A stretch of DNA of 64,000 nucleotides from the NCBI GenBank assembly GCA_963575745.1, contig CAUYUJ010018305.1, positions 490,357 through 554,356 of the forward strand. The letters are read 5' to 3'. Below, piece by piece: positions 20,925 to 31,726 of this stretch. Origin of the DNA: Prorocentrum cordatum (Eukaryota > Sar > Dinophyceae > Prorocentrales > Prorocentraceae). The notes under the pieces are model-generated. The model was given only the letters and a program-made list of their open reading frames with translations, was not told where the DNA came from and did not search any database. Numbering within the stretch: position 1 is the first letter of the stretch; every line of letters starts with the position of its first letter. The position numbers and the translations under genes are program-made.

Positions 20925-21045
20925 TTTTTTCAGCCTCTGGATGCCATGTCCTGGCTCCGGGATCTTCAACACGCGACTCAGGATGAAAAACCGGCCCTGG
21001 GCAAGTGGTCGATATCTCTGGGGGCCCGTGTCACACACAAAAATG
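20925..21045 (+). repeat. Dispersed repeat H, partial copy
   Basis: GCGACTCAGGATGAAAAACC, GGCCCTGGGCAAGTGGTCG and GGGGGCCCGTGT align with the other H copies. Preceded by a run of eight Ts. Confidence 0.7.
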
Positions 21046-21535
21046 TCTCGTCGGGGGGGATGGACACTTGATGGACAAAATCTTGTACCCTGTATGTTGA
21101 TTTTTGTGAACATCCCCGGCGCCCGCAATTTATATTGGCGATCTGCGACGCGGTGTGTCGATCTGCCGACTGGCCGAATTCCTGCACCCCATTAACCAAC
21201 ATTGAATCGGGGGCAGGGGGTTCGCGTTGAAGTTCGCGCCCGCGCGGTGGTCGCACGGGCGGTGTAGGGTTTTGTCCATCAACCAGAGGCCAAGAGGATC
21301 TCTGGAGGGTTTCTCTTTGATGGGAATTCGAACCCCCTCCGACTCCGTGCGCGGTGTTCGGCAGCTCAGTGCTGGGTGACTTCGAGCAAGAGCACGTGTT
21401 TTCTTTCGATCCCCCCCTGGAGGTACACCCCCCCAGGGGATGCGAACGGAAACGCCTGCACCGCCCACCACCATCCGGCCTCTCCTCTCCGGCTCGGCCT
21501 TCCCCTATCCATTTTCACTTTCAGGCATCTCTAGG
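21046..21535. other. Non-genic stretch
   Basis: Unique sequence with no recognised gene. A tRNA T-arm-like string on the minus strand near 21310 lacks the rest of a tRNA and was not called. Confidence 0.5.
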
Positions 21536-21723
21536 CCTCCCAGATGGGGTCCGAGCTCATGGGGTCGGCCCGCGCCGCACAGCCGATGCGTCGGCGATGC
21601 GGCTTGATGTGGATCCCCATTTTCTCCACGACGACGTCGCCGATGCGTCGCCGATGCATCGGTGATGCATCGACGATGCCGTGCGATCCTCCGACCCCAT
21701 CTTCTCCTGCCCCATCCAGGAGG
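21536..21723. repeat. Foldback family G, copy 1 (188 bp)
   Basis: The left end CCTCCCAGATGGGGTCCGAG is answered by CTCCGACCCCATCTTCTC...CCATCCAGGAGG on the right. The centre is rich in CGATGCGTCGCCGATGC palindromes. The second copy at 42324-42701 has much better preserved ends. Confidence 0.75.
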
Positions 21724-22176
21724 CCTATCGCCCCTCCACAGAAGCGGCCTGCCTCCCTCCACGTTGGCCCTTGGAGCTCACCGTTCTGTCCAGTATGCCG
21801 GGGCGGATGCAGCCTTGGCGGCGAGTGCCCACCTCCCCCGTTCGAAGGTCCAGGGGAGGAGGAGGTGGCGGCGGAGGAGGAGGAGGAGGAGGAGGAAAAG
21901 AAAGAGAAGGAGCTCCCTCCTCCCTCATCCCTCTTCTCCTTTCTTCCGCTCTTCTCCTCTCCTCCTCTCTTCTCTCCCCTCTCCCTCCCCCTCGTTGTCG
22001 TCGTCGTCGTCGTCGTCCTCCTCCTCCTCCTCCCTCCCTCCCTCCCTCCCTCCCTCCCTCCCTCCCTCCCTCCCTCCCTCCCTGGCTCCTCCCTCCTCCT
22101 CCTCCTCCTCCTCCTCCTCCTCCTCCTGCTCCTCCCCCTTCCCCTCCTCCTCCTCCTCCTCCTCCTCCTCCTCCCC
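21724..22176 (+). repeat. (GGA)n then TCC/TCCC arrays up to the LINE 5' junction
   Basis: (GGA)n at 21856-21900, mixed TCTCC, a GTC run at about 21991-22015, TCCC repeats at 22030-22085, and (TCC)n at 22093-22176. The last triplet array runs directly into the spliced-leader sequence of the LINE. Confidence 0.9.
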
Positions 22177-22198
22177 TCCGTAGCCATTTTGGCTCAAG
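22177..22198 (+). other. Genomic dinoflagellate spliced-leader (DinoSL) relic
   Basis: All 22 positions match the conserved dinoflagellate spliced leader, whose first base is degenerate: T, then CCGTAGCCATTTTGGCTCAA and G. In a spliced-leader RNA gene the exon is followed by a GT donor; here GGCTTTG follows, so this is not an SL RNA gene. It is the leader fixed in DNA by reverse transcription of a trans-spliced mRNA. It marks the exact 5' end of the LINE transcript. Confidence 0.95.
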
Positions 22199-22353
22199 GG
22201 CTTTGTCTTGGCGGGCTGAGCCCGCATAGGCAGAAACGGACACCGCTGACACCGCGGCAGTGCGAGGGCGCTTGCGCCCGATCAGTTTCTTTGCAGTGCT
22301 GGTTCGCCCCAGCAACTGCTTCTCCACGGGGCTCGGAGCTCCCGAGCCATCCC

Positions 22354-23445
22354 ATGTCTTCGAAGGCGGCGAAGCGGCGGCAGAATGAGAGTGAGAACTG
22401 GGTCTGTCGTTTCTGCGTCCACGCTGTCACGAAGAAGCCCTGGTTCAACAAAGCAGGGGTCATGTACTGTCGCCAGTGCAGCCTGCACAAGTCCGTGTGC
22501 TTCAAAGAGAATCTCAAGCAGTCGGAGTCTCCAAGCACTTCTACTCGGTCTGCCACGCTCGAGGCCAAGTGTGCGGAGCTTCAAGAGCAAGTCAGACAGC
22601 TTCAAGCAGCAAGGCGTTCTTCTCCTGATTCAGGTACTGGGAACCCTCCTCCTTGGGCTGCTGATGCTAAGCAGTGTGACAAGCGCAGCAGGATCAAGTA
22701 CCTGGAAGGTCTCATCAAGCAAGTGGCGAGTGGAGGCTTTTCCCAGGACGAGGAGCTGCTCAGACGGTACCGAGAAGAGAAGTCTGCCCTCGAGACGGCC
22801 TTGTTTGCTGACAGACCTGTTGAGGAGCAGGCTCGCAGTTTGGCAAACCGGCTTCAAAGTGCTCGGCATAAGGAAACGCAGCTGCAGAAGGCCCGCGACG
22901 AGCAGCAGAGCAAGATCAGCGAGCTCCAGAAGGTCTTGGAGAGCCTCGACACGCGTTTGGTTGAGGCCAAGGAGGAGGTCCTGCGGCTTGAATGTGAGAC
23001 GAGGGCAACCATGTCCAAGGCTCAGCCACCCGACGGCAGTGGGGAAGGGCCTCCTTCGTTGCGGCAAATGCTCCCCACGCTCTCTGTGTCGGTCGAGCAG
23101 CTGGGGGTGGTCGCTTCTGGGCTGGGGGTTCCTCCAGACCTCTTGGAAGAGCTGCAGGCGATGGCGGCCACGATCAAGAAGCTCGCCGAACTCCCTGCAG
23201 CGCAGCCACCCACCCCAGAGCCACAGCAGCAACCGCAGACGCCCGAGGAGCCCGAGGAGGACCCCGAGGAGGACCCTGCGCCACATGTTGAGTCCATGGA
23301 CGTGGATGATCTGCGGGCTACTCTGGATGCAGCAGGGATACCTGCGCAACCCTCGGATGACGCCGAGGTGCTGCGTGGCAAGATCAGGAAGATGCAGACG
23401 AGCTACCTCTCCATGTGCAAGCGGCAAAAGCCGTCGGCCGAGTAG
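22354..23445 (+). CDS. LINE ORF1 protein (zinc finger plus coiled coil)
   Basis: 363 residues from the ATG at 22354, the first in-frame ATG after the spliced leader; the frame is open further upstream only through (TCC)n. Residues 18-42 hold C-x2-C-x17-C-x2-C (CRFC and CRQC), a zinc-ribbon-like finger probably for nucleic-acid binding. Two heptad-rich, charged regions (about 68-95 and 140-235) predict coiled coils that could mediate self-association, as in other LINE ORF1 proteins. A Pro/Glu/Gln-rich acidic linker at about 290-315 is followed by a short C-terminal helix-like segment (DVDDLRATLDAAGIP...). The likely role is binding element RNA in a ribonucleoprotein particle; this is inferred from position and architecture, not from a recognised ORF1 domain. 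Confidence 0.8.
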   Translation: MSSKAAKRRQNESENWVCRFCVHAVTKKPWFNKAGVMYCRQCSLHKSVCFKENLKQSESPSTSTRSATLEAKCAELQEQVRQLQAARRSSPDSGTGNPPPWAADAKQCDKRSRIKYLEGLIKQVASGGFSQDEELLRRYREEKSALETALFADRPVEEQARSLANRLQSARHKETQLQKARDEQQSKISELQKVLESLDTRLVEAKEEVLRLECETRATMSKAQPPDGSGEGPPSLRQMLPTLSVSVEQLGVVASGLGVPPDLLEELQAMAATIKKLAELPAAQPPTPEPQQQPQTPEEPEEDPEEDPAPHVESMDVDDLRATLDAAGIPAQPSDDAEVLRGKIRKMQTSYLSMCKRQKPSAE

Positions 23446-23559
23446 GTTCTCGCTTGTGTTCAATGTGCTCAGTGTGATGGTTGGAAGTGTTAGTGGAATG
23501 ATGGTTGTTTCGGAAAGTGCAGGACCTTCCCCGCGAATGGAAGGAATATTGGGCTCGAG

Positions 23560-24460
23560 TGGCGACCGCTGTGTACTCGGAAGCGCTGGACCTGTTGTTG
23601 GGATGACTGGCACTGGTGATTGCGTGGAGGAGGCCAGCGGGAGCCCTTTCTCATTGAGTCGATGTGCTATTTCAGATGATGGTTCTAATTTTGCAGGGTT
23701 GGGACCTGCTTCTGTCCCATTGGCTTATGTGAATGCTGGTATGTGGAGTACAAGGGCTTCCACCAGTCTTTTGTCTGCCCCTGGTAGTGGGCCAGGTGCT
23801 GGGGCTTCGGCGTCGGCCTCCTGTTCAGGGACAGCGTTGAGTTCGGCGACTCGGCAGTTCTCTGCATTGGGAGCAGTTCTGGGTCCTGCCATCGTCCCTT
23901 CGCTAATGGAGGGCGACCGCTGTGCTCTCGGAAGCGCTGGACCTGTTGTCGGGCCGACTGGCGCAGGTGATTGCGTGAATGAGGCCAGTGGAAGCCCTCC
24001 CTCAGGGAAGGCTTTATTCGGAGTACTACGGCTTCCACCAGTCTCTTGTCTGCCCCTGGTAGTGGGCCAGGTTCTGGGGCTTCGGCGTCGGCTTCATGTA
24101 CCAGGACAGCGGCGAGTTCGGCGACTCGGCATTTCTCTGCATCTGGTGCTTTTCTGGAATCTACCTTCGTCCCTTCGCTTATGGAGGGCGGCCGCTGTGT
24201 TCTCGGAAGCGCTGGACCTGTTGTCGGGCTGACTGGCGCAGGTGATTGCGTGAATGAGGCCAGTGGAAGCCCTCCCCCAGGGAAGGCTAGTATGCGGGGA
24301 ACTACGGCTACCACCAGTCTCTTGTCTGCCCCTGGTAGCGGGCCAGGGGCTTGGGCTTCGGCGTCGGCCTCCTGTTCCAGGTCAGCGGCGGGTTCGGCGA
24401 CGCGGCATTTCTCTGCCCCTGGTGGTGGGCCAAGTGCTGGCAGTTCGGCGTCAAGGTCAG
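23560..24460 (+). repeat. ~275-bp coding tandem repeat at the ORF2 N-terminus
   Basis: TGCCCCTGGTAGTGGGCCAG and variants start at about 23776, 24051 and 24327 (periods 275 and 276). GCGACCGCTGTG-type landmarks occur at 23562, 23913 and 24188. Copies encode a Ser/Ala/Gly-rich block (SAPGSGPG..ASASASC, then GSAGPVVGxTGAGDCVNEAS). The 275-nt step shifts the reading frame and the 276-nt step keeps it; in the second copy GGCTTTATTCGG has lost one base relative to GGCTAGTATGCGG. Confidence 0.9.
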
Positions 24461-27400
24461 CTGTTTCAGGCGGTTGGGGGCAGCCCGCGGTCATTGCCCC
24501 AAACGATGCGGCTGATGGTCCACCTCTCACTGGTACGAGGTCGGCTAAACGTTGCTGCATCACGACAGTCAATGCTGGCTCGCATGGGCCGCTGTTTGAG
24601 TATCTCTCGGAGTACCAGGGCTCGGTTCTCTTGGCGCAGGAGACCAGAGTCGTGGAGGCCCGTTTAGGAGAATTTCAGAATAGGGCGAGGGATGCAGGCT
24701 GGCACGGGCTGTGGTCAGCAGCGTTAGAGACGGGCGAGTCGGCCATGTCCAACTCGAGTGGGGTGGTGGTCTTTGCTCGCACCAACATCACCATCACCGC
24801 CCCCCCTGACGGCAGCCATGTGATATATCCTGGAAGAGCGGTATGCGCCCACGTGCAATGTGGGGTCCCAGGTGGCATTGTCTTTGCTAGCGTTTACTTT
24901 GTGACGGCGATTGGCATGACTGGAGAAAATCTTGCTATACTTTGGGCAGTTGTGCAGAGGATTGCTCAGTGGCAGGCTCTGGGACTGGACTGGGTGATAG
25001 GCGGAGATTGGAATTGCGACTTCTATGCCGTCAATGTCAAAGGTTGGGTCGAGAAGCTTGCAGGCTTGGCGTTTGTTCCGTCGGAGGCCACGTGCATTAC
25101 CGACGCTGGTTCGTCCAAGATTGATTATTTTCTGGCCGCCAGCAACTTGGTTCCAAGACTCGACAGGCAGGCGGTGGTGATGAATGCCCAAGCCACCATT
25201 CCACCTCCACATTTTCCCGTGCAGCTGGTGGTCCATGGGTCGGACAGGCCCATGTGGTGTCGAGTTGCTGATGAACCGAGGAAGTTTCCCCCGATCCCAC
25301 CAGTAGGATGTGCGAGGTACCCTTACAACTGGGACGGGATCAAAGGCATGTTTGAGTCGGTGAAGGCGCCCAGTGACTTACCGCGTGTGTGGGATGCAGT
25401 ACTTGATGGCGTTGATTTCGAGATCGCTGGGAGATTTGACAAAGTCGATGGTAAGGCCCAGGAATTCGTTGGACGAGCTGGACCCCCGAGATTCAAATGG
25501 GAACAAACGACATGGACTCCACCTCGAAAGCGAGAATATCGAGACTCCAGGGTAGCTGCGTGGGCCACGGCAAAGCGTTGGGTGGCCCACTTGCGGTCGG
25601 AGAAGGATAAGCTGCACCGTTTCTGTGAGCGGCTCCGAATATGCAGTGCGGTGTGCACGTTAACCGAGATGCAGTACTTCAAGGTGCTGCAGGCGTTCGA
25701 CGAGGCTGGGAGATATTGTGACAAGATTTCTGCTGAGCAGTGGGTGCTCAAGGATTTGGGTGAGGAGTTCAGTGAATTTCTGCAAAAAGGGTTGGTGATG
25801 ATTGTCGATCCAAACTTTGAGAGTATCACTGATGCCATTTCCGCCCAGGCCGACAAGGTTTTAGGCCAGGAGCGTTCTAGAACGGAAAAGATTTGGAGAG
25901 AATGGGCTCGTGAGTCTTTCTTGGAAGGGGCCAGTCGGGCCCATGCGATGTCCAAAGTCCGAGCACAAGCTGAAGTACTCCAATATTGTCAGGAGTCGCA
26001 GCCATACCAGCTTGCTGACCAGACTTTGCGGCAGTGGTCCAAGGTATGGACGCATCATCGGCTTCAAGCGCCTGATCTTCCCTCGGATTCCAGTGAGTGG
26101 GACGCTCTTCCCCATATCTCTTTTACTGATGTAAGGAATGTGGTGAGGTCCTTTTCGACCAAGACAGCTGCTGGCCCTACGAGGTTGGCGCCGAGGAGTC
26201 TGGACGTCCTGTCCGACGGCGCGCTCCAAGCTATTGGCAACCTTTTCATGTTATGTGAACGGTGGTTGTGCTGGCCAGCAGATCGAATACACAGCGAACT
26301 CGTGCGACTGCCGAAACCCGATGGCGATCACCGATTAATTGTTCTGAGTAACACACTGATACGTGTATGGGGGAAACTCAGGCGACCGATTTCGAGGGAA
26401 TGGCAAGATCGATATGCCTGCCATGAGATGTGGGGCACGAAATCGGGGCAGACTTCGAGCGATTCGGCATTCGACCACAATTTGCAGCAGGAGATTGCCG
26501 AGTTGCTAGGGGAGAACACATGCACGATTCTTTTGGATATGTCCAAGTGCTACGAGATGGTAGACCCGCACGCTTTGTTGCGAGAAGGGAGAGCCTTGGG
26601 GTTCTCTATGCGATTGCTGTGGATGCTCGTGTGCAGTTACCAGCAGCCGCGAAGGATTCGCGCGTTTGGTAGCGTATCGGTTGGGCAGGTATCTTACCAA
26701 GGAATTTTGGCGGGTTGCACGCATGCTACTTTCCTCCTCTACCTGCTCACGTACAGGGCTGTCAGTAGAGCAAACCAGGTCTCGGTCACGGTCACGCCCC
26801 GCACCCTCATGGATGATGTCGGGCTCCAGTCCATCTCGAAGGCCCCTGAGGACCTCAAGTATCTGGCCATTGCGGCCAAGGGCTTCGTCCACGATTCCAA
26901 GGGGCTGGGTATGGTTTTAAATGCTGCGAAGTCAGGCGGGATCCCTGGGAAAAAACGTCTCTGGAAGACCGTCAGTAAGTACATGGGCTCCATGAAGATC
27001 CCGTTCAAGGCCCACATGAGGAACTTAGGCCACGAGTTGTCAGGACCTCGAGTTTTGCGTAGGATCGAGAAGCGTCGCCTGACCAGTTTTAGAGATCGCC
27101 GCCAGCGTTTCACCATGCTGCGAAGGGCGACAGGCAGGCGAGTGACATCGTTGTGGAGGACTGGGGCCCTGCCGTCAGTTGGCCACGGCGCCACTGTGGC
27201 AGGGGTGAGCGACTCGGCTTTGAAGGAGCTCAGGCTGTTCGCGGCGGTCCTCAATGGGGCTCCTGGCAGATCCTCCACGGGGCTCACGGCGTACTTGATC
27301 TCGCACAAGAACGACCAGTATGACCCCATATACCATGCGACGTTGCAGGTTGTGATTAAGTTTTCGGAATGGATCTGGGACTCCAGGGTTCAACCGAGCA

Positions 27401-29334
27401 GGCTCCACAGGGCCTGGGAGAAGCTCAACGAGAAGTTCGGGGGCTCGCAGAAGGCTTCGTGGGCCCAGGCCAGGGGCCCCATGGCGGCCACATGGCTGTC
27501 GCTTCGAAGGATCTCTTGGGACCTTGTCGCCAGCCACGTTGTTAGGGACGACCTAGGCCGAGTCTACGACCTCAGGACGCTGAGCCCAGCAGATTTCAAG
27601 CACTTCTTGACCGAGGGAGTGCAGAGGTGGCAACACGGCCGCCTCTTGCGGCATCTTTATACTGTGGGTGACGGAGTAGCTATTCCAGTCTGGCACAGGG
27701 CCCTCAGGTATGCGATAAAAGGGATTCGATGCGTGAAGCGTCTTGGAGCGATTCAGGCACACTGGGCCGACGGTATCCCTATACCTGCCAGGCTGGATTT
27801 GAAGGCTGGAGGCCGATTCCGTCCCTGCGCAGCTTGTGGTCGCCAGATCAACGAATGCTGGGGACACATTCTGTACGACTGCCCTGCTCTCTTGGAGGGC
27901 GACCCCGATGATGAATTTGCTGCCCTGCCTGAACAGCTCGTCGAAGTGCGAGATCGCCTGGTGAATTCTGGAGTCGGGGCAGGTCGTCCCGAATGGGACT
28001 ACACATACCCTGTCTATGGGATCCCTGAGCTTCCTGTCGGGCTACCTCCGAGAGATTCTGTGAGTTCTGAAGTTTTGTACTGGGGCGATACCGAAGGGCA
28101 ATGGGGGCCAAAGTCGTACACGGACGGTTCGGGGTTCGGGTCGAATGTGCCAGAAACCAGGAGGTGTGGCTGGGGCCTATGCCAGTTGGACCCCGACACT
28201 TTCTTGCCGAAGCGGGCGATTTTCGGCCCATTGCCGTATCTAATCCAGACAGTCGGTCGTGCTGAAAGATATGCTATACGTATGGGGCTGGTTGTTCATC
28301 CAAACCACGAGGTTTTCGTGAGCGATTTACTCTCTTTGGTGGAGGAGGGGAATGCTTGGATGGACGAACTTCAGCACGGCCGAAAGCAGCATGCACGTGT
28401 GTGGCGAGATATTTTTATTGCAGCTGAGAGGCGGGACAAGAAGCTGCCGCCTCCAGCATTCCAGTGGACCCCTGCGCATCGAGACATCGAAGCTGTGGTG
28501 TCGAGCGGGGCTGGTACTACGGAAATTCAAGATTGGCTCGGCAATGCCTGGGCGGACTTTTTCGCAAGAGTTGGCGCTGCTCAACATGCTGTCGCAAAGG
28601 TGACGACGGAGAGCGTGGCGTCCGCCCTGAAAGAGCACCGACTGGTTCTTCAGTATGTGTCCTGGGGAATCCAGAGGGTGGTGGAGTCTCAGAAGTACGG
28701 GCGAGATGTGTTTCCAGGGCCCCGTCCAGTTGAGATTCGTGCGCCTGTGCTCTTTCAAAAAGCGGATGATCATGTATTGTACAAGAACGTCAAGACGGGC
28801 GTTTTCAAGTGTAGAAGGTGCGGGGCCTCAGCCCGCACGCCTGCATCCTTCGACAATCTGCGTGTGGGTGGGGGTCGGAAGTGTGTGCCCAGCAAGATCA
28901 CCCAGGCCCTCACAAATGAGTTCTTCAGGACGTCCCTCGACGTGTGGGAGATGCCAGTGAGTGATGCGCGCGTGGCCGCTGCCCTCGATGCCGCTGCCGC
29001 CTTAGAGCCCCAAGGAGCCCCCGAGGAGGCCGAAGGAGGCCCCTCCCAGCCACCTGTGCTCGACGGGGCCTCTAGGGAGGATGTGGACCCCCTCATCCTG
29101 GAGTGTGGGGCTCTAGGGCACGATGTGTTCCGTGTTAATTCAATGTATTGCTGCCGTCGTTGTGCAGGGCATTGTTCAGTGTTGCAGGTTAATAGTCTCA
29201 GGAAGCTGAAGCGTGAGTGTGTAGGCCTCTCTGACAACCTCAGCACTCGGAGGAACCAGCTCAGGGCGATCGACAGGATCAGCCGTGGGCTCGAGCCACG
29301 TCAGCGTGGAGGGGACCCCGAGCCCCCGCCGTAG
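24181..29334 (+). CDS. LINE ORF2: endonuclease, reverse transcriptase, RNase H
   Basis: 1717 residues from the first in-frame ATG (24181). The true start may be the ATG at 23477 in the +2 frame, joined by a one-base shift in the tandem repeat near 24010. Endonuclease (about 120-345), APE/EEP type: Glu154 (LAQETR), Asp276/Asn278 (GGDWNCD), Asp315 (SKIDYF), possibly His344. Reverse transcriptase: motif A Asp786 (LLDMSKCYE), motif B as GILAGCTHATFLL, motif C Asp878-Asp879 (LMDDVG). A C-x2-C-x9-H-x4-C finger lies at 1216-1234. RNase H: Asp1315 (YTDGSG), Glu1362 (AERYA), Asp1382, His1433, Asp1459 (NAWAD), so the full catalytic set is present. Two C-terminal CxxC pairs (CRRCGA, CCRRC) may bind nucleic acid. 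The protein should nick target DNA and copy element RNA by target-primed reverse transcription. Motif B and the LMDD box depart from the usual QG...SP and YADD forms. Confidence 0.92.
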   Translation: MEGGRCVLGSAGPVVGLTGAGDCVNEASGSPPPGKASMRGTTATTSLLSAPGSGPGAWASASASCSRSAAGSATRHFSAPGGGPSAGSSASRSAVSGGWGQPAVIAPNDAADGPPLTGTRSAKRCCITTVNAGSHGPLFEYLSEYQGSVLLAQETRVVEARLGEFQNRARDAGWHGLWSAALETGESAMSNSSGVVVFARTNITITAPPDGSHVIYPGRAVCAHVQCGVPGGIVFASVYFVTAIGMTGENLAILWAVVQRIAQWQALGLDWVIGGDWNCDFYAVNVKGWVEKLAGLAFVPSEATCITDAGSSKIDYFLAASNLVPRLDRQAVVMNAQATIPPPHFPVQLVVHGSDRPMWCRVADEPRKFPPIPPVGCARYPYNWDGIKGMFESVKAPSDLPRVWDAVLDGVDFEIAGRFDKVDGKAQEFVGRAGPPRFKWEQTTWTPPRKREYRDSRVAAWATAKRWVAHLRSEKDKLHRFCERLRICSAVCTLTEMQYFKVLQAFDEAGRYCDKISAEQWVLKDLGEEFSEFLQKGLVMIVDPNFESITDAISAQADKVLGQERSRTEKIWREWARESFLEGASRAHAMSKVRAQAEVLQYCQESQPYQLADQTLRQWSKVWTHHRLQAPDLPSDSSEWDALPHISFTDVRNVVRSFSTKTAAGPTRLAPRSLDVLSDGALQAIGNLFMLCERWLCWPADRIHSELVRLPKPDGDHRLIVLSNTLIRVWGKLRRPISREWQDRYACHEMWGTKSGQTSSDSAFDHNLQQEIAELLGENTCTILLDMSKCYEMVDPHALLREGRALGFSMRLLWMLVCSYQQPRRIRAFGSVSVGQVSYQGILAGCTHATFLLYLLTYRAVSRANQVSVTVTPRTLMDDVGLQSISKAPEDLKYLAIAAKGFVHDSKGLGMVLNAAKSGGIPGKKRLWKTVSKYMGSMKIPFKAHMRNLGHELSGPRVLRRIEKRRLTSFRDRRQRFTMLRRATGRRVTSLWRTGALPSVGHGATVAGVSDSALKELRLFAAVLNGAPGRSSTGLTAYLISHKNDQYDPIYHATLQVVIKFSEWIWDSRVQPSRLHRAWEKLNEKFGGSQKASWAQARGPMAATWLSLRRISWDLVASHVVRDDLGRVYDLRTLSPADFKHFLTEGVQRWQHGRLLRHLYTVGDGVAIPVWHRALRYAIKGIRCVKRLGAIQAHWADGIPIPARLDLKAGGRFRPCAACGRQINECWGHILYDCPALLEGDPDDEFAALPEQLVEVRDRLVNSGVGAGRPEWDYTYPVYGIPELPVGLPPRDSVSSEVLYWGDTEGQWGPKSYTDGSGFGSNVPETRRCGWGLCQLDPDTFLPKRAIFGPLPYLIQTVGRAERYAIRMGLVVHPNHEVFVSDLLSLVEEGNAWMDELQHGRKQHARVWRDIFIAAERRDKKLPPPAFQWTPAHRDIEAVVSSGAGTTEIQDWLGNAWADFFARVGAAQHAVAKVTTESVASALKEHRLVLQYVSWGIQRVVESQKYGRDVFPGPRPVEIRAPVLFQKADDHVLYKNVKTGVFKCRRCGASARTPASFDNLRVGGGRKCVPSKITQALTNEFFRTSLDVWEMPVSDARVAAALDAAAALEPQGAPEEAEGGPSQPPVLDGASREDVDPLILECGALGHDVFRVNSMYCCRRCAGHCSVLQVNSLRKLKRECVGLSDNLSTRRNQLRAIDRISRGLEPRQRGGDPEPPP

Positions 29335-29481
29335 GCTGTTTTTTGGTCTGGGCCCCCAGGTCCCTGGCGTGTGTGGTCCTGGGGCCCCTCGCGTTTCCTG
29401 GTGTGGCCGTTTTTCCCTGTCCTTGTTTGTGCTGAGGTATGTCAGTCCAGCTGGCGTACTCTTGGTAGCCTGCACCCTGCA

Positions 29482-30205
29482 CCCTCCTCCTCCTCCTGTT
29501 CCTCCTCCTCCTCCTCCTCCTCCTCCTCCTCCTCCTCCCTCTTCTCCTCGTCCTTCCTCTGGTTCCGGGTTCCTCTTCCCCCTTTCCTCTTCCTCCTCCT
29601 CCTCCTCTTCTTCTTCCTCCTCCTCCTCCTCCTCCTCCTCCTCCTCCCCGTCCTCGTCCCCGTCCCCGTCCCCCTTCTCCTCCTTCCTCGGGGCCAGCCT
29701 TGCCAGGGGCAGCGCGTCGTGAGGCTGCTGAAGTCGGGCGAGGAGCTGACCGCGCGCGCGGAGCAGCTCTTCGTGCCCAAGCAGAGTGCGCAGCCTGGGT
29801 CAGGGGTGCAGGCCCGAGACCCCTCCTCCCTCCTCCCCCTCCTCCTCCTCCTCCTCCTCCTCCTCCTCCTCTCCTCCTCCTCCTCCTCCTCCTCCTCCTC
29901 CTCCTCCTCCTCCTCCTCCTCCTCCTCCTCCTCCTCCTCCTCCCTCCTCCTCCTCCTCCTCCTCCTCCTCCTCCTCCTCCTCCTCCTCCTCCTCCTCCTC
30001 CTCCTACCCTCCCTTCCTCCTCCTCCTCCTCCTCCTCCTCCTCCTCCTCCTCCTCCTCCTCCCTCCTCCTCCTCCTGTTCCTCCTCCTCCTCCTGCTCCT
30101 GCTCCTCCTCCTCCTCCTCCTCCTCCTCCTCCTCCTCCTCCTCCTCAGTGCGCAGCCTGGGTCAGGGGTGCAGCCCCGAGACCCCGCCGCCGCCGCCGCC
30201 ACCGC

Positions 30206-30285
<80 letters not shown>

Positions 30286-30305
30286 TCGTCATCGTCGTCG
30301 TCCCA
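29482..30305 (+). repeat. (TCC)n arrays with a 40-bp direct duplication, then (CGT/GGC)n
   Basis: (TCC)n fills 29482-29680 and 29820-30145. AGTGCGCAGCCTGGGTCAGG followed by GGTGCAG and CCGAGACCCC occurs at 29783-29822 and again at 30146-30185, bracketing the second array. 30186-30305 is CCG, then GTC, then GGC triplets. Long frames here are low-complexity. Confidence 0.9.
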
Positions 30306-31726
30306 CTTTCTCCCCCGTTCCCTCCTCCCCTGCACTTCTACTCCGTCTGGCAGCAATACTGCTGTGCTTGCTTTTGACCTCAAACCGTACTGTGCCCCAT
30401 CTGGCACTGGAGCCTGTTCCTTATGAGTCATGCGGCACACGCGCGCATTTTCTCTGGTTAAAGGATAGCATGCGTGCCACACACGTCCTGAACGGGCACC
30501 ATCTTCATCAGCTAGACACTGCGATGCACGCGTGATACCACACTTACGTTTGATAGCAATCGCATTCAAATGCAACCAGGCGGGTCACACTCGCGAGCTG
30601 AACTTCCCCACCCGTGCCACATACCAACACGCAGACCTTTCGCACGATTAATGGGCACCATCCCTGTCGAAGAGTACCTCGCGGGCCAGTTGTGCGCGCG
30701 CGACAATCCCCATTAACACAGTTACCAATGTGCGCTTATGGGCTCATGAACTTGCACTGCCTTGTGAATGGGCTGGGCGAGCAAGTTGGATGTGGTAATA
30801 CGTTGTTTGTTATGAAGGAGAAGCTGTATTTCCGATGCGAAGGGTTGCGAAGAGGTAAAGGTTTCTGATTGGGTGGGTGGGTCTGATGCAGCATTTCGGC
30901 AGTCGCTACCTCTACGCTGCAATAGCTCTACTCTACCTCAAGCCTGGCTCTTGGGGGCCTCTTGGCGATCTCGGGTGCCATTTTCGCACTGCTCCTGGGG
31001 CCAGTTCGTGTTCCCCCTCTTGTGCCGAACCCCTTCGAAACACATGGTTTATTGTCGGCTGTGTGTGTGTGCGCGCGCATGTTCTCGATATACGTTTGTA
31101 CAGCTAAGAAACATACAACATGCCTTCGGAACCCATCGCGCGATAACATCCGAGAGCGCCCAGAAGCGCCCGGAAATCCAGGCTTGTGGCCGCCTAAGGA
31201 TCAGACGCAGTATTCAATGCAGAGAAGTTGAGGGGAGCTCAGGGCACTCCACTCAGTGTTGCGGTACGGTGGTATATAGGTGTCACATTGTTTTGGGAAT
31301 GTGAAGAGTGACAGAAGTTATGCTCGCGCGCGTGCCAAACACATATTCTGCGGGTCAGCAAGTGGCCATGTTCCAATGTTTGGATGACTTCGTCAAAGGT
31401 GAGGGGGCAGTCGAAGGTGGTGTCGGGCCGTTGGCGTTCATGTGCTTGTCTGGCCTTGCGCGTGGACTGGCTATAGCGTTTGCTGCGTCTCTGCAGTCAC
31501 GGCCTCTTGGCATGAAGGAGGAGCTTCATCATGATGCGAAGGGCTGCTTAAATAAGTAAGAGCTTTACAGTATGGTGGGTGGTTGGCTCTGATGCTCTTT
31601 TTTGGGTGGCATCTGGACCTGCTCCACTCTGGCGTTGACATCACTACTCTACTTGCTCCTCTCCGCAAGCCAGATCTGGCCCTGCCAGGGCGCACCTGGC
31701 CCAGGGCATGCTCCGTAGGTAATATC
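30306..31726. other. Non-genic stretch with a ~130-bp direct duplication
   Basis: The segment 30810-30945 (GAAGGAGAAGCTGTATTTCC, GATGCGAAGGGTTGC, GGTGGGTGGGTCTGATGC) recurs in diverged form at 31511-31645 (GAAGGAGGAGCTTCATCATG, GATGCGAAGGGCTGC, GGTGGGTGGTTGGCTCTGATG). An 83-codon frame at 31308-31559 has ordinary composition, but half of it lies in this repeat and it has no recognised homology, so it is not called. Confidence 0.5.

What the first reader, a model, noticed from the sequence alone, without database searches (positions are those of the whole stretch)
22177..29480. Full-length LINE whose genomic copy begins exactly with the dinoflagellate spliced leader
A perfect 22-nt DinoSL sits at the 5' junction of a two-ORF LINE. 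Spliced-leader relics are known in dinoflagellate genes recycled through mRNA. Here the recycled transcript is the retrotransposon itself, so the element's own RNA was trans-spliced and then copied to its very 5' end. This implies the element may obtain its cap and leader from the host rather than from its own 5' UTR, and that any internal promoter must work without preserving sequence upstream of the leader.
Basis: partly seen in the sequence, partly recalled or inferred. Interest (0 to 1): 0.88.

Follow-up and report, generated by a model that had tools for sequence, protein, structure and literature searches.

The report
LINE retrotransposons headed by spliced leader
In this dinoflagellate genome a group of jumping genes begins, in nearly every full-length copy that could be read, with the short leader that the host splices onto its own messages, which suggests that they borrow the host's cap and leader at each jump instead of keeping a front end of their own.

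Summary
Confirmed and extended. The window copy starts with a perfect 22-nt dinoflagellate spliced leader (DinoSL) at 22177-22198, 155 nt before ORF1 of a two-ORF LINE. It is not a one-off. In the window's own 4.13-Gb assembly the ORF1 search scored 112 places (a lower bound). Of 109 examined, 96 have the leader at the 5' UTR; 11 of the other 13 are truncated, gapped, at a contig edge or carry leader remnants; two are unclear. By exact UTR start, 24 of 24 places of this subfamily and 56 of 60 of a sister subfamily have it. The leader is the same where adjacent UTRs are 49-69% identical (shuffled 51%). Eight copies carry an older leader behind a new one, one of them two, so leader-bearing copies were trans-spliced again and re-copied. 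Target duplications end at the leader's first nucleotide. Insertions favour pyrimidine microsatellites, sense strand pyrimidine (75 of 96 flanks at least 90%; background 3-7%), which could also serve as splice-acceptor tract. Best reading: LINEs that renew a host-donated cap and leader at each jump. Trans-splicing is inferred from DNA; no RNA was examined. The window copy's ORF2 frame is broken; 13 of 20 sibling copies have it open.

The parts
21913..22176 (+). 5' flank: pyrimidine-rich (CCT)n/(CTCC)n tract, about 95% C+T, without any AG for 264 nt; target microsatellite and candidate polypyrimidine tract of a splice acceptor
22177..22198 (+). complete 22-nt DinoSL, first nucleotides of the element; contains the AGs of CCGTAG and CTCAAG
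   Evidence: same junction in 96 of 109 copies
22199..22353 (+). 5' UTR, 155 nt
22354..23445 (+). ORF1, 363 aa, Cys-rich N-terminus by inspection; no Pfam match
   Evidence: one outside relative with 83% identity, P0001
23477..29334 (+). ORF2 region; first ATG of its frame after ORF1 at 23477; frame interrupted between about 23983 and 24230 in this copy, open in 13 of 20 copies examined
23731..24424 (+). 2.5 tandem copies of a 275-bp unit
24592..25152 (+). endonuclease-like domain (Exo_endo_phos), below the Pfam cut-off
26311..26934 (+). reverse transcriptase domain (RVT_1), active-site residues LMDD (recognised by alignment and recall)
28105..28580 (+). probable RNase H-like domain (YTDGS...WADFF); motif recognised by eye and recall, no Pfam hit
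   Evidence: alignment; inference
29335..29484 (+). 3' UTR ending in two TGCACCC units, no poly(A)
29485..29689 (+). 3' flank: the same kind of (CCT)n tract; the target duplication cannot be delimited inside it

Best explanation
This is a group of non-LTR retrotransposons (LINEs) whose 5' terminus is donated by the host's spliced-leader machinery. SHOWN from DNA: nearly all readable full-length copies start at the first nucleotide of DinoSL; copies with delimitable flanks have target duplications; they sit mostly in pyrimidine microsatellites with the pyrimidine strand as sense strand; and some leader-bearing copies received a further leader and were re-inserted, leaving stacked leaders. INFERRED: (1) a copy is transcribed by read-through of its neighbourhood; (2) the pyrimidine tract plus an AG of the encoded leader acts as a trans-splice acceptor, so SL RNA supplies a new cap and leader: at CTCAAG the leader is exactly renewed, at CCGTAG a 15-nt relic is left behind; (3) the capped leader-bearing mRNA makes the element's proteins; (4) target-primed reverse transcription in another pyrimidine tract copies the RNA to its 5' end, so the new copy has leader and acceptor tract together. 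No upstream sequence of the element's own has to be preserved.
For: Leader at the junction in 96 of 109 examined copies, 86 exact, T before CCGTAG in 96 of 96. Exact UTR-start census, leader with up to two edits: 24 of 24 (subfamily A) and 56 of 60 (subfamily B). UTRs next to the leader are 49-69% identical between subfamilies (one close pair 92%; shuffled mean 51%), leader 22 of 22 in the six representatives. Within four subfamilies (70 copies): 0 shared variants at 88 leader sites, 16 at 517 UTR sites. Stacked leaders in 8 of 96, one with two relics. Target duplications, e.g. 17 bp in L024 ending right at TCCGTAG. Flank at least 90% pyrimidine in 75 of 96, purine-rich in 0 of 96, against backgrounds of 2.6% and 7.2%. 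Recent spread: median divergence 0.32% among 18 copies.
Against: No RNA evidence was available; trans-splicing is inferred from stacked leaders. Why most copies (88 of 96) have a single leader is not settled: use of the CTCAAG acceptor is inferred, while the stacked copies mostly show CCGTAG. L094 has its UTR without a leader, and L092 is unclear. Not every insertion is in a pyrimidine tract: 7 of 96 flanks are below 80% (e.g. L063, L106). Target preference may serve priming only and have nothing to do with splicing. Some UTR pairs (A-B 69%, A-D 60-62%) are above shuffled levels, so not all UTRs are unrelated. The 0-of-88 against 16-of-517 contrast is weak on its own (about 2.7 expected). One of 18 further leaders, L134, has A instead of T before CCGTAG. 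Copies in duplicated loci (L055/L056) are not independent.
Confidence: 0.72

Rival explanations
1. Master-locus model: a few SL-less source loci with an ordinary acceptor AG make all single-leader copies; leader-bearing copies are mostly dead ends and only rarely (stacked leaders) act as sources.
For: Only 8 of 96 copies have stacked leaders; the tree of 18 subfamily-A copies is nearly star-like.
Against: Every exact UTR start of subfamily A in the assembly has the leader (24 of 24). In B the 60 places are 56 leaders, 3 cut, degenerate or contig-edge leaders and 1 internal duplicate. Only exact matches to the UTR patterns were counted, and the published assembly of the presumed species covers 4.15 of an estimated 4.75 Gbp, so a missing master is possible. 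Stacked leaders occur in several subfamilies.
Confidence: 0.17
2. Leader mimicry: the leader has become ordinary element sequence. An internal promoter starts transcription at the encoded leader, so RNA looks trans-spliced without being so; stacked leaders are occasional accidents.
For: Single leaders dominate (88 of 96); an internal promoter at the 5' edge is known in L1Tc (Pr77; passages of PMC8190864). Selection on the leader could also keep it invariant.
Against: Leader identical across subfamilies whose UTRs are 49-69% identical; leader variants inside subfamilies all private; stacked leaders imply real trans-splicing onto leader-bearing loci.
Confidence: 0.09
3. Chance, assembly artefact, or a leader from a neighbouring retrogene or SL gene.
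For: None found.
Against: 0 of 100 shuffles; recurrence at 96 of 109 places with mostly different flanks; no GT donor after the leader, so not an SL RNA gene.
Confidence: 0.01

Closest known systems
DinoSL-tagged retrogenes of dinoflagellates (PMC6050394, PMC12014239; passages read)
   Same: Genomic DinoSL left by reverse transcription of trans-spliced mRNA; stacked 15-nt relics CCATTTTGGCTCAAG as reported there.
   Different: Here the recycled RNA is that of the mobile element itself, the leader is the regular 5' end of a whole group, and 3' ends carry TGCACCC units instead of poly(A).
DinoSL near endogenous dinoRNAV sequences (PMC10235124, passages)
   Same: Leaders within 500 bp of 6 of 26 RdRp insertions; its authors propose host LINEs among the machines that inserted them.
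   Different: There viral RNA carried by a proposed helper; here the LINE's own RNA, with the leader at the insert edge.
L1Tc/ingi LINEs of trypanosomatids (PMC8190864, passages)
   Same: LINEs in a host with polycistronic transcription and SL trans-splicing.
   Different: L1Tc carries its own promoter and HDV-like ribozyme (Pr77) and makes unspliced transcripts; no such ribozyme was found here (Rfam, E up to 1).
SL-containing retrotransposons in Schistosoma mansoni (PMC5832876, passages)
   Same: Genome-encoded SL exons merged with six transposable elements; the authors suggest trans-spliced, retro-transcribed elements.
   Different: There single cases that the authors could not separate from chimeric assembly; here a group-wide terminus with target duplications.
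Cer1 of C. elegans (PMC3315495, passages)
   Same: A retrotransposon mRNA receives SL1.
   Different: LTR element; [quoted passage not shown]
Microsatellite-targeting LINEs (named in the abstract of PMC4640811, listing; Kibi/Koshi recalled, no call)
   Same: Preference for simple-repeat targets.
   Different: Preference here is strong, not strict, and in one orientation that puts pyrimidines 5' of the sense strand.

Membership tests
LINE (non-LTR retrotransposon) | Reverse transcriptase of LINE type | tested here: met
   RVT_1 E 8e-6, 26.1 bits against a cut-off of 29.6; best PDB hit of the profile is LINE-1 ORF2p, E 5.6e-4
LINE (non-LTR retrotransposon) | APE-type endonuclease upstream of RT | tested here: inconclusive
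   Exo_endo_phos E 0.0012, 19.1 bits against 24.5; relative P0007 also below cut-off. AP-endonuclease-type chains among weak PDB hits
LINE (non-LTR retrotransposon) | Target duplications and no terminal repeats | tested here: met
   Duplication of 17 bp in L024, 15 in L017, 16 in L021, 16-21 in L019; the others lie in repeats or have no readable 3' end (L015, L028); self-comparison of the window copy shows internal repeats only
LINE (non-LTR retrotransposon) | 5'-truncated copies | tested here: met
   L025, L047, L070; L105, L113
Named LINE clade (I, R1, Tad, L1 ...) | Position in an RT phylogeny | not tested
   no reference RT set was built
DinoSL retrogene | DinoSL or relic at the 5' end | tested here: met
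DinoSL retrogene | Poly(A)-derived 3' end (recalled as a general mark of processed copies) | tested here: not met
   3' ends in TGCACCC-type units in the 18 of 20 copies with a readable 3' end, one of them (L026) as TGCTGCC
DinoSL retrogene | Moved in trans by another element | tested here: inconclusive
   Copies encode their own RT, but four share one broken ORF2 frame
L1Tc/ingi type with 5' HDV-like ribozyme | HDV-like ribozyme at the 5' end | tested here: not met
   no such family among matches at E up to 1 in 21000-31000
Microsatellite-specific LINE | Strict target specificity | tested here: not met
   89 of 96 flanks at least 80% pyrimidine, 7 lower

The most novel reading that the evidence does not exclude
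A LINE lineage whose life cycle depends on host spliced-leader trans-splicing: each jump renews cap and leader from SL RNA, and choice of a pyrimidine microsatellite supplies the polypyrimidine tract that, with the encoded leader's own AG, rebuilds a trans-splice acceptor at the new site. The element thus needs neither a promoter nor a conserved 5' end, and its machinery is a ready source of the DinoSL retrogenes of dinoflagellates.
Probability: 0.6. Interest if true: 0.92.

Novelty: new variant of a known kind. Interest (0 to 1): 0.86.

Why it matters
LINEs face the problem of carrying a promoter that survives copying; this group appears to solve it by taking its 5' end from the host in each round. 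It also bears on an open question. A 2018 review of dinoflagellate retrogenes says that it is unknown which retroelement makes them and favours LTR elements (PMC6050394, passages); a 2023 study of viral insertions proposes LINEs among others (PMC10235124, passages). Here LINE RNA with the leader was copied to its last nucleotide. That gives a test: do DinoSL retrogenes share pyrimidine-tract targets and target duplications? Near-identical copies (median 0.32%) suggest activity recent enough to study.

Tried and rejected
Viral-contig scans for relatives of ORF1 and ORF2 found none; a leader scan there gave one unrelated contig, L001. An SL RNA gene was rejected: no GT donor after the leader. 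A cap-derived extra G at the 5' junction was considered: G precedes the T in 7 of 96 copies, no more than at other flank positions in the 78 first examined; L011 and L013 have one extra nucleotide beyond the target duplication; inconclusive. Homology search gave one ORF1 relative and eleven ORF2 relatives, without DNA context; both searches scored only the candidates that share most words. A census by one combined pattern of leader plus UTR did not complete, so places were examined singly. Two ORF1 hits (C16994, C14773) were not examined. first miscounted the base before the leader in copies of the first batch because of a loose match; one search mended this.

Paper searches: (listings); passages of PMC12014239, PMC6050394, PMC3942190, PMC8045281, PMC11453091, PMC7245778, PMC3229502, PMC10235124, PMC8190864, PMC5832876, PMC4558846, PMC9911081, PMC3315495, PMC10666404. 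In these I saw no report of a LINE group with DinoSL as its regular 5' end; subscription papers and supplements were not searched.
Full report
OBSERVATION. The window holds one exact DinoSL, T+CCGTAGCCATTTTGGCTCAAG, at 22177-22198. Chance gives none in 100 shuffles. It stands at the edge of a pyrimidine tract, about 95% C+T, without any AG for 264 nt, and 155 nt before ORF1 (22354-23445). ORF2 carries weak endonuclease and reverse transcriptase matches, both under the Pfam cut-offs, and a profile of it with ten relatives finds LINE-1 ORF2p among solved structures. The leader is followed by GGC, not by a GT donor, so this is not an SL RNA gene.

WHICH GENOME. The window lies in G000, 4,128,499,153 bases in 21,875 contigs. 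Size and G+C (59.9% in the window) fit Prorocentrum cordatum as published (4.15 Gbp, 59.7%; PMC10666404, passages). This is an inference; G000 is unnamed.

SIBLING COPIES. The ORF1 protein scored 112 places in G000 out of 39,974 first-look candidates, so counts are lower bounds: 28 at 81-100% identity and 84 at 40-51%. I examined the 5' region of 109: 20, 69, 20. With up to two edits, 96 of 109 have the leader, 86 of them exact, with T before it in all 96. The other 13: four 5'-truncated (L025, L070, L105, L113), one cut inside the leader (L047), one with a degenerate leader (L059), one at a contig edge with a partial leader (L044), one with a gap up to GGCTCAAG (L098), three with gaps (L054, L068, L097), one too decayed to read (L092), and one with a complete-looking UTR but other DNA upstream (L094). 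A later look at C17678 also showed the leader. C16994 and C14773 were not examined.

CENSUS BY UTR. An exact 24-nt UTR-start pattern of the window's subfamily occurs 24 times in G000, and all 24 have the leader directly before the UTR; in one (L017) a relic stands between, in one (L031) a second leader. A 25-nt pattern of a sister subfamily occurs 60 times. Of these, 18 were not among the ORF1 hits and all 18 have the leader, one with an edit; 17 have T and one has A before CCGTAG. Of the other 42, 38 have it with up to two edits; the remaining four are L047, L059, L044 and a second, internal duplicate in L039. So no SL-less source of either subfamily is visible among exact matches.

UPSTREAM OF THE LEADER. 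All-against-all comparison of 78 flanks gave 19 matching rows. L055/L056 match in register at 98%. L085/L091 match at 92%, but both are pyrimidine-rich and off register. L018/L041 share a repeat of about 64% identity that ends about 60 nt before the leader; it is inverted in L024. The rest, 67-87% identical, are short, off register, inverted or rich in pyrimidine repeats. I take none as an extension of the element.

INHERITED OR RENEWED. Between subfamily representatives the 120 nt after the leader are 49-69% identical (92% for one close pair), against a shuffled mean of 51% and maximum of 56% for one pair; A-B and A-D are above that. The leader is the same 22 nt in all six. Within four subfamilies (70 copies), no leader site out of 88 has a variant shared by two copies, against 16 of 517 UTR sites; minor letters are 5 of 1539 and 87 of 8991. 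Eight of 96 copies have an older leader behind the new one: six with one 15-nt relic (one a variant, L043), L118 with two, L031 with two full leaders; they fall in several subfamilies. The 15-nt form is the relic described for retrogenes (PMC12014239, passage) and implies splicing at the AG of CCGTAG. These copies imply that leader-bearing loci are transcribed, trans-spliced again and re-copied, in one lineage at least three times.

INTEGRATION. In L024 a 17-bp non-repetitive duplication flanks the insert; it ends right before TCCGTAG and restarts after TGCACCCT. L017 and L021 have 15 and 16 bp, L019 16-21; the others lie in repeats and cannot be delimited. There is no poly(A): 3' ends show TGCACCC-type units in the 18 of 20 copies with a readable end. 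Flanks are at least 90% pyrimidine over 50 nt in 75 of 96 copies and at least 80% in 89 of 96; none is purine-rich. Backgrounds are 2.6% in the window and 7.2% at 250-600 nt upstream of the copies. The second background lies in the same regions and may be raised by the same arrays. In 68 of 78 copies there is no AG in the last 50 nt, against 12% in the window.

AGE AND INTEGRITY. Eighteen copies differ by a median of 0.32%. Thirteen of 20 have an uninterrupted frame of about 2,325 codons through ORF2; the window copy and three others share one break.

HOW IT WORKS. The shown and inferred steps are separated in Best explanation. The weakest link is which AG is used when no relic remains. If it is CTCAAG, each round restores exactly one leader. 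A master locus would give the same pattern but was not found. The pyrimidine preference could be merely a priming preference; its use as acceptor tract is my inference.

COMPARISON. Trypanosomatid L1Tc solves the same host problem the other way, with its own promoter and ribozyme and unspliced transcripts (PMC8190864, passages); Rfam shows no such ribozyme here. S. mansoni has a few SL-bearing elements that its authors could not separate from assembly chimeras (PMC5832876, passages). DinoSL retrogenes are well known; one review thinks LTR elements likelier makers (PMC6050394, passages), while LINEs have been proposed for viral insertions (PMC10235124, passages). I saw no report of a LINE group with a spliced leader as regular terminus in the searches named in Tried and rejected.

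VERDICT. The finding stands and is larger than reported: it describes a group of LINEs, not one copy. Novelty: new variant of a known kind.

Noticed in passing
L001, about 1787-2913 (IMG/VR contig IMGVR_UViG_3300045993_001077): An AT-rich contig filed as viral (giant-virus-like by eye, not tested) holds two exact DinoSLs; the second heads a roughly 1-kb stretch of about 50% G+C with a 254-aa ORF. It looks like a dinoflagellate mRNA, leader included, inserted into a viral genome.
   Followed up: partly
window 22355-23443: The +1 frame is open through the whole of ORF1 (0 of 5000 codon shuffles leave it open) and joins the ORF2 frame in 13 of 20 copies: possible dual coding or frameshift fusion.
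   Followed up: partly
L013, about 7270 nt downstream of its ORF1 start: A second, different LINE-like element with DinoSL at its start and a Cys-rich ORF sits in the same (CCT)n array just 3' of the first: leader-headed elements may reach beyond this family.
   Followed up: partly
L094 upstream of its UTR: The one readable full UTR without a leader is preceded by a short inverted repeat (GTAACAGCAAA...TTTGCTGTTAC), perhaps a small inserted element.
   Followed up: no
L018, L019, L020, L026: Four copies at different loci share the same ORF2 frame break, as if a broken source had been moved in trans.
   Followed up: no
G000 whole assembly: 14,218 exact 21-nt DinoSLs, control 0; what share heads LINEs, retrogenes or SL genes was not determined.
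   Followed up: no
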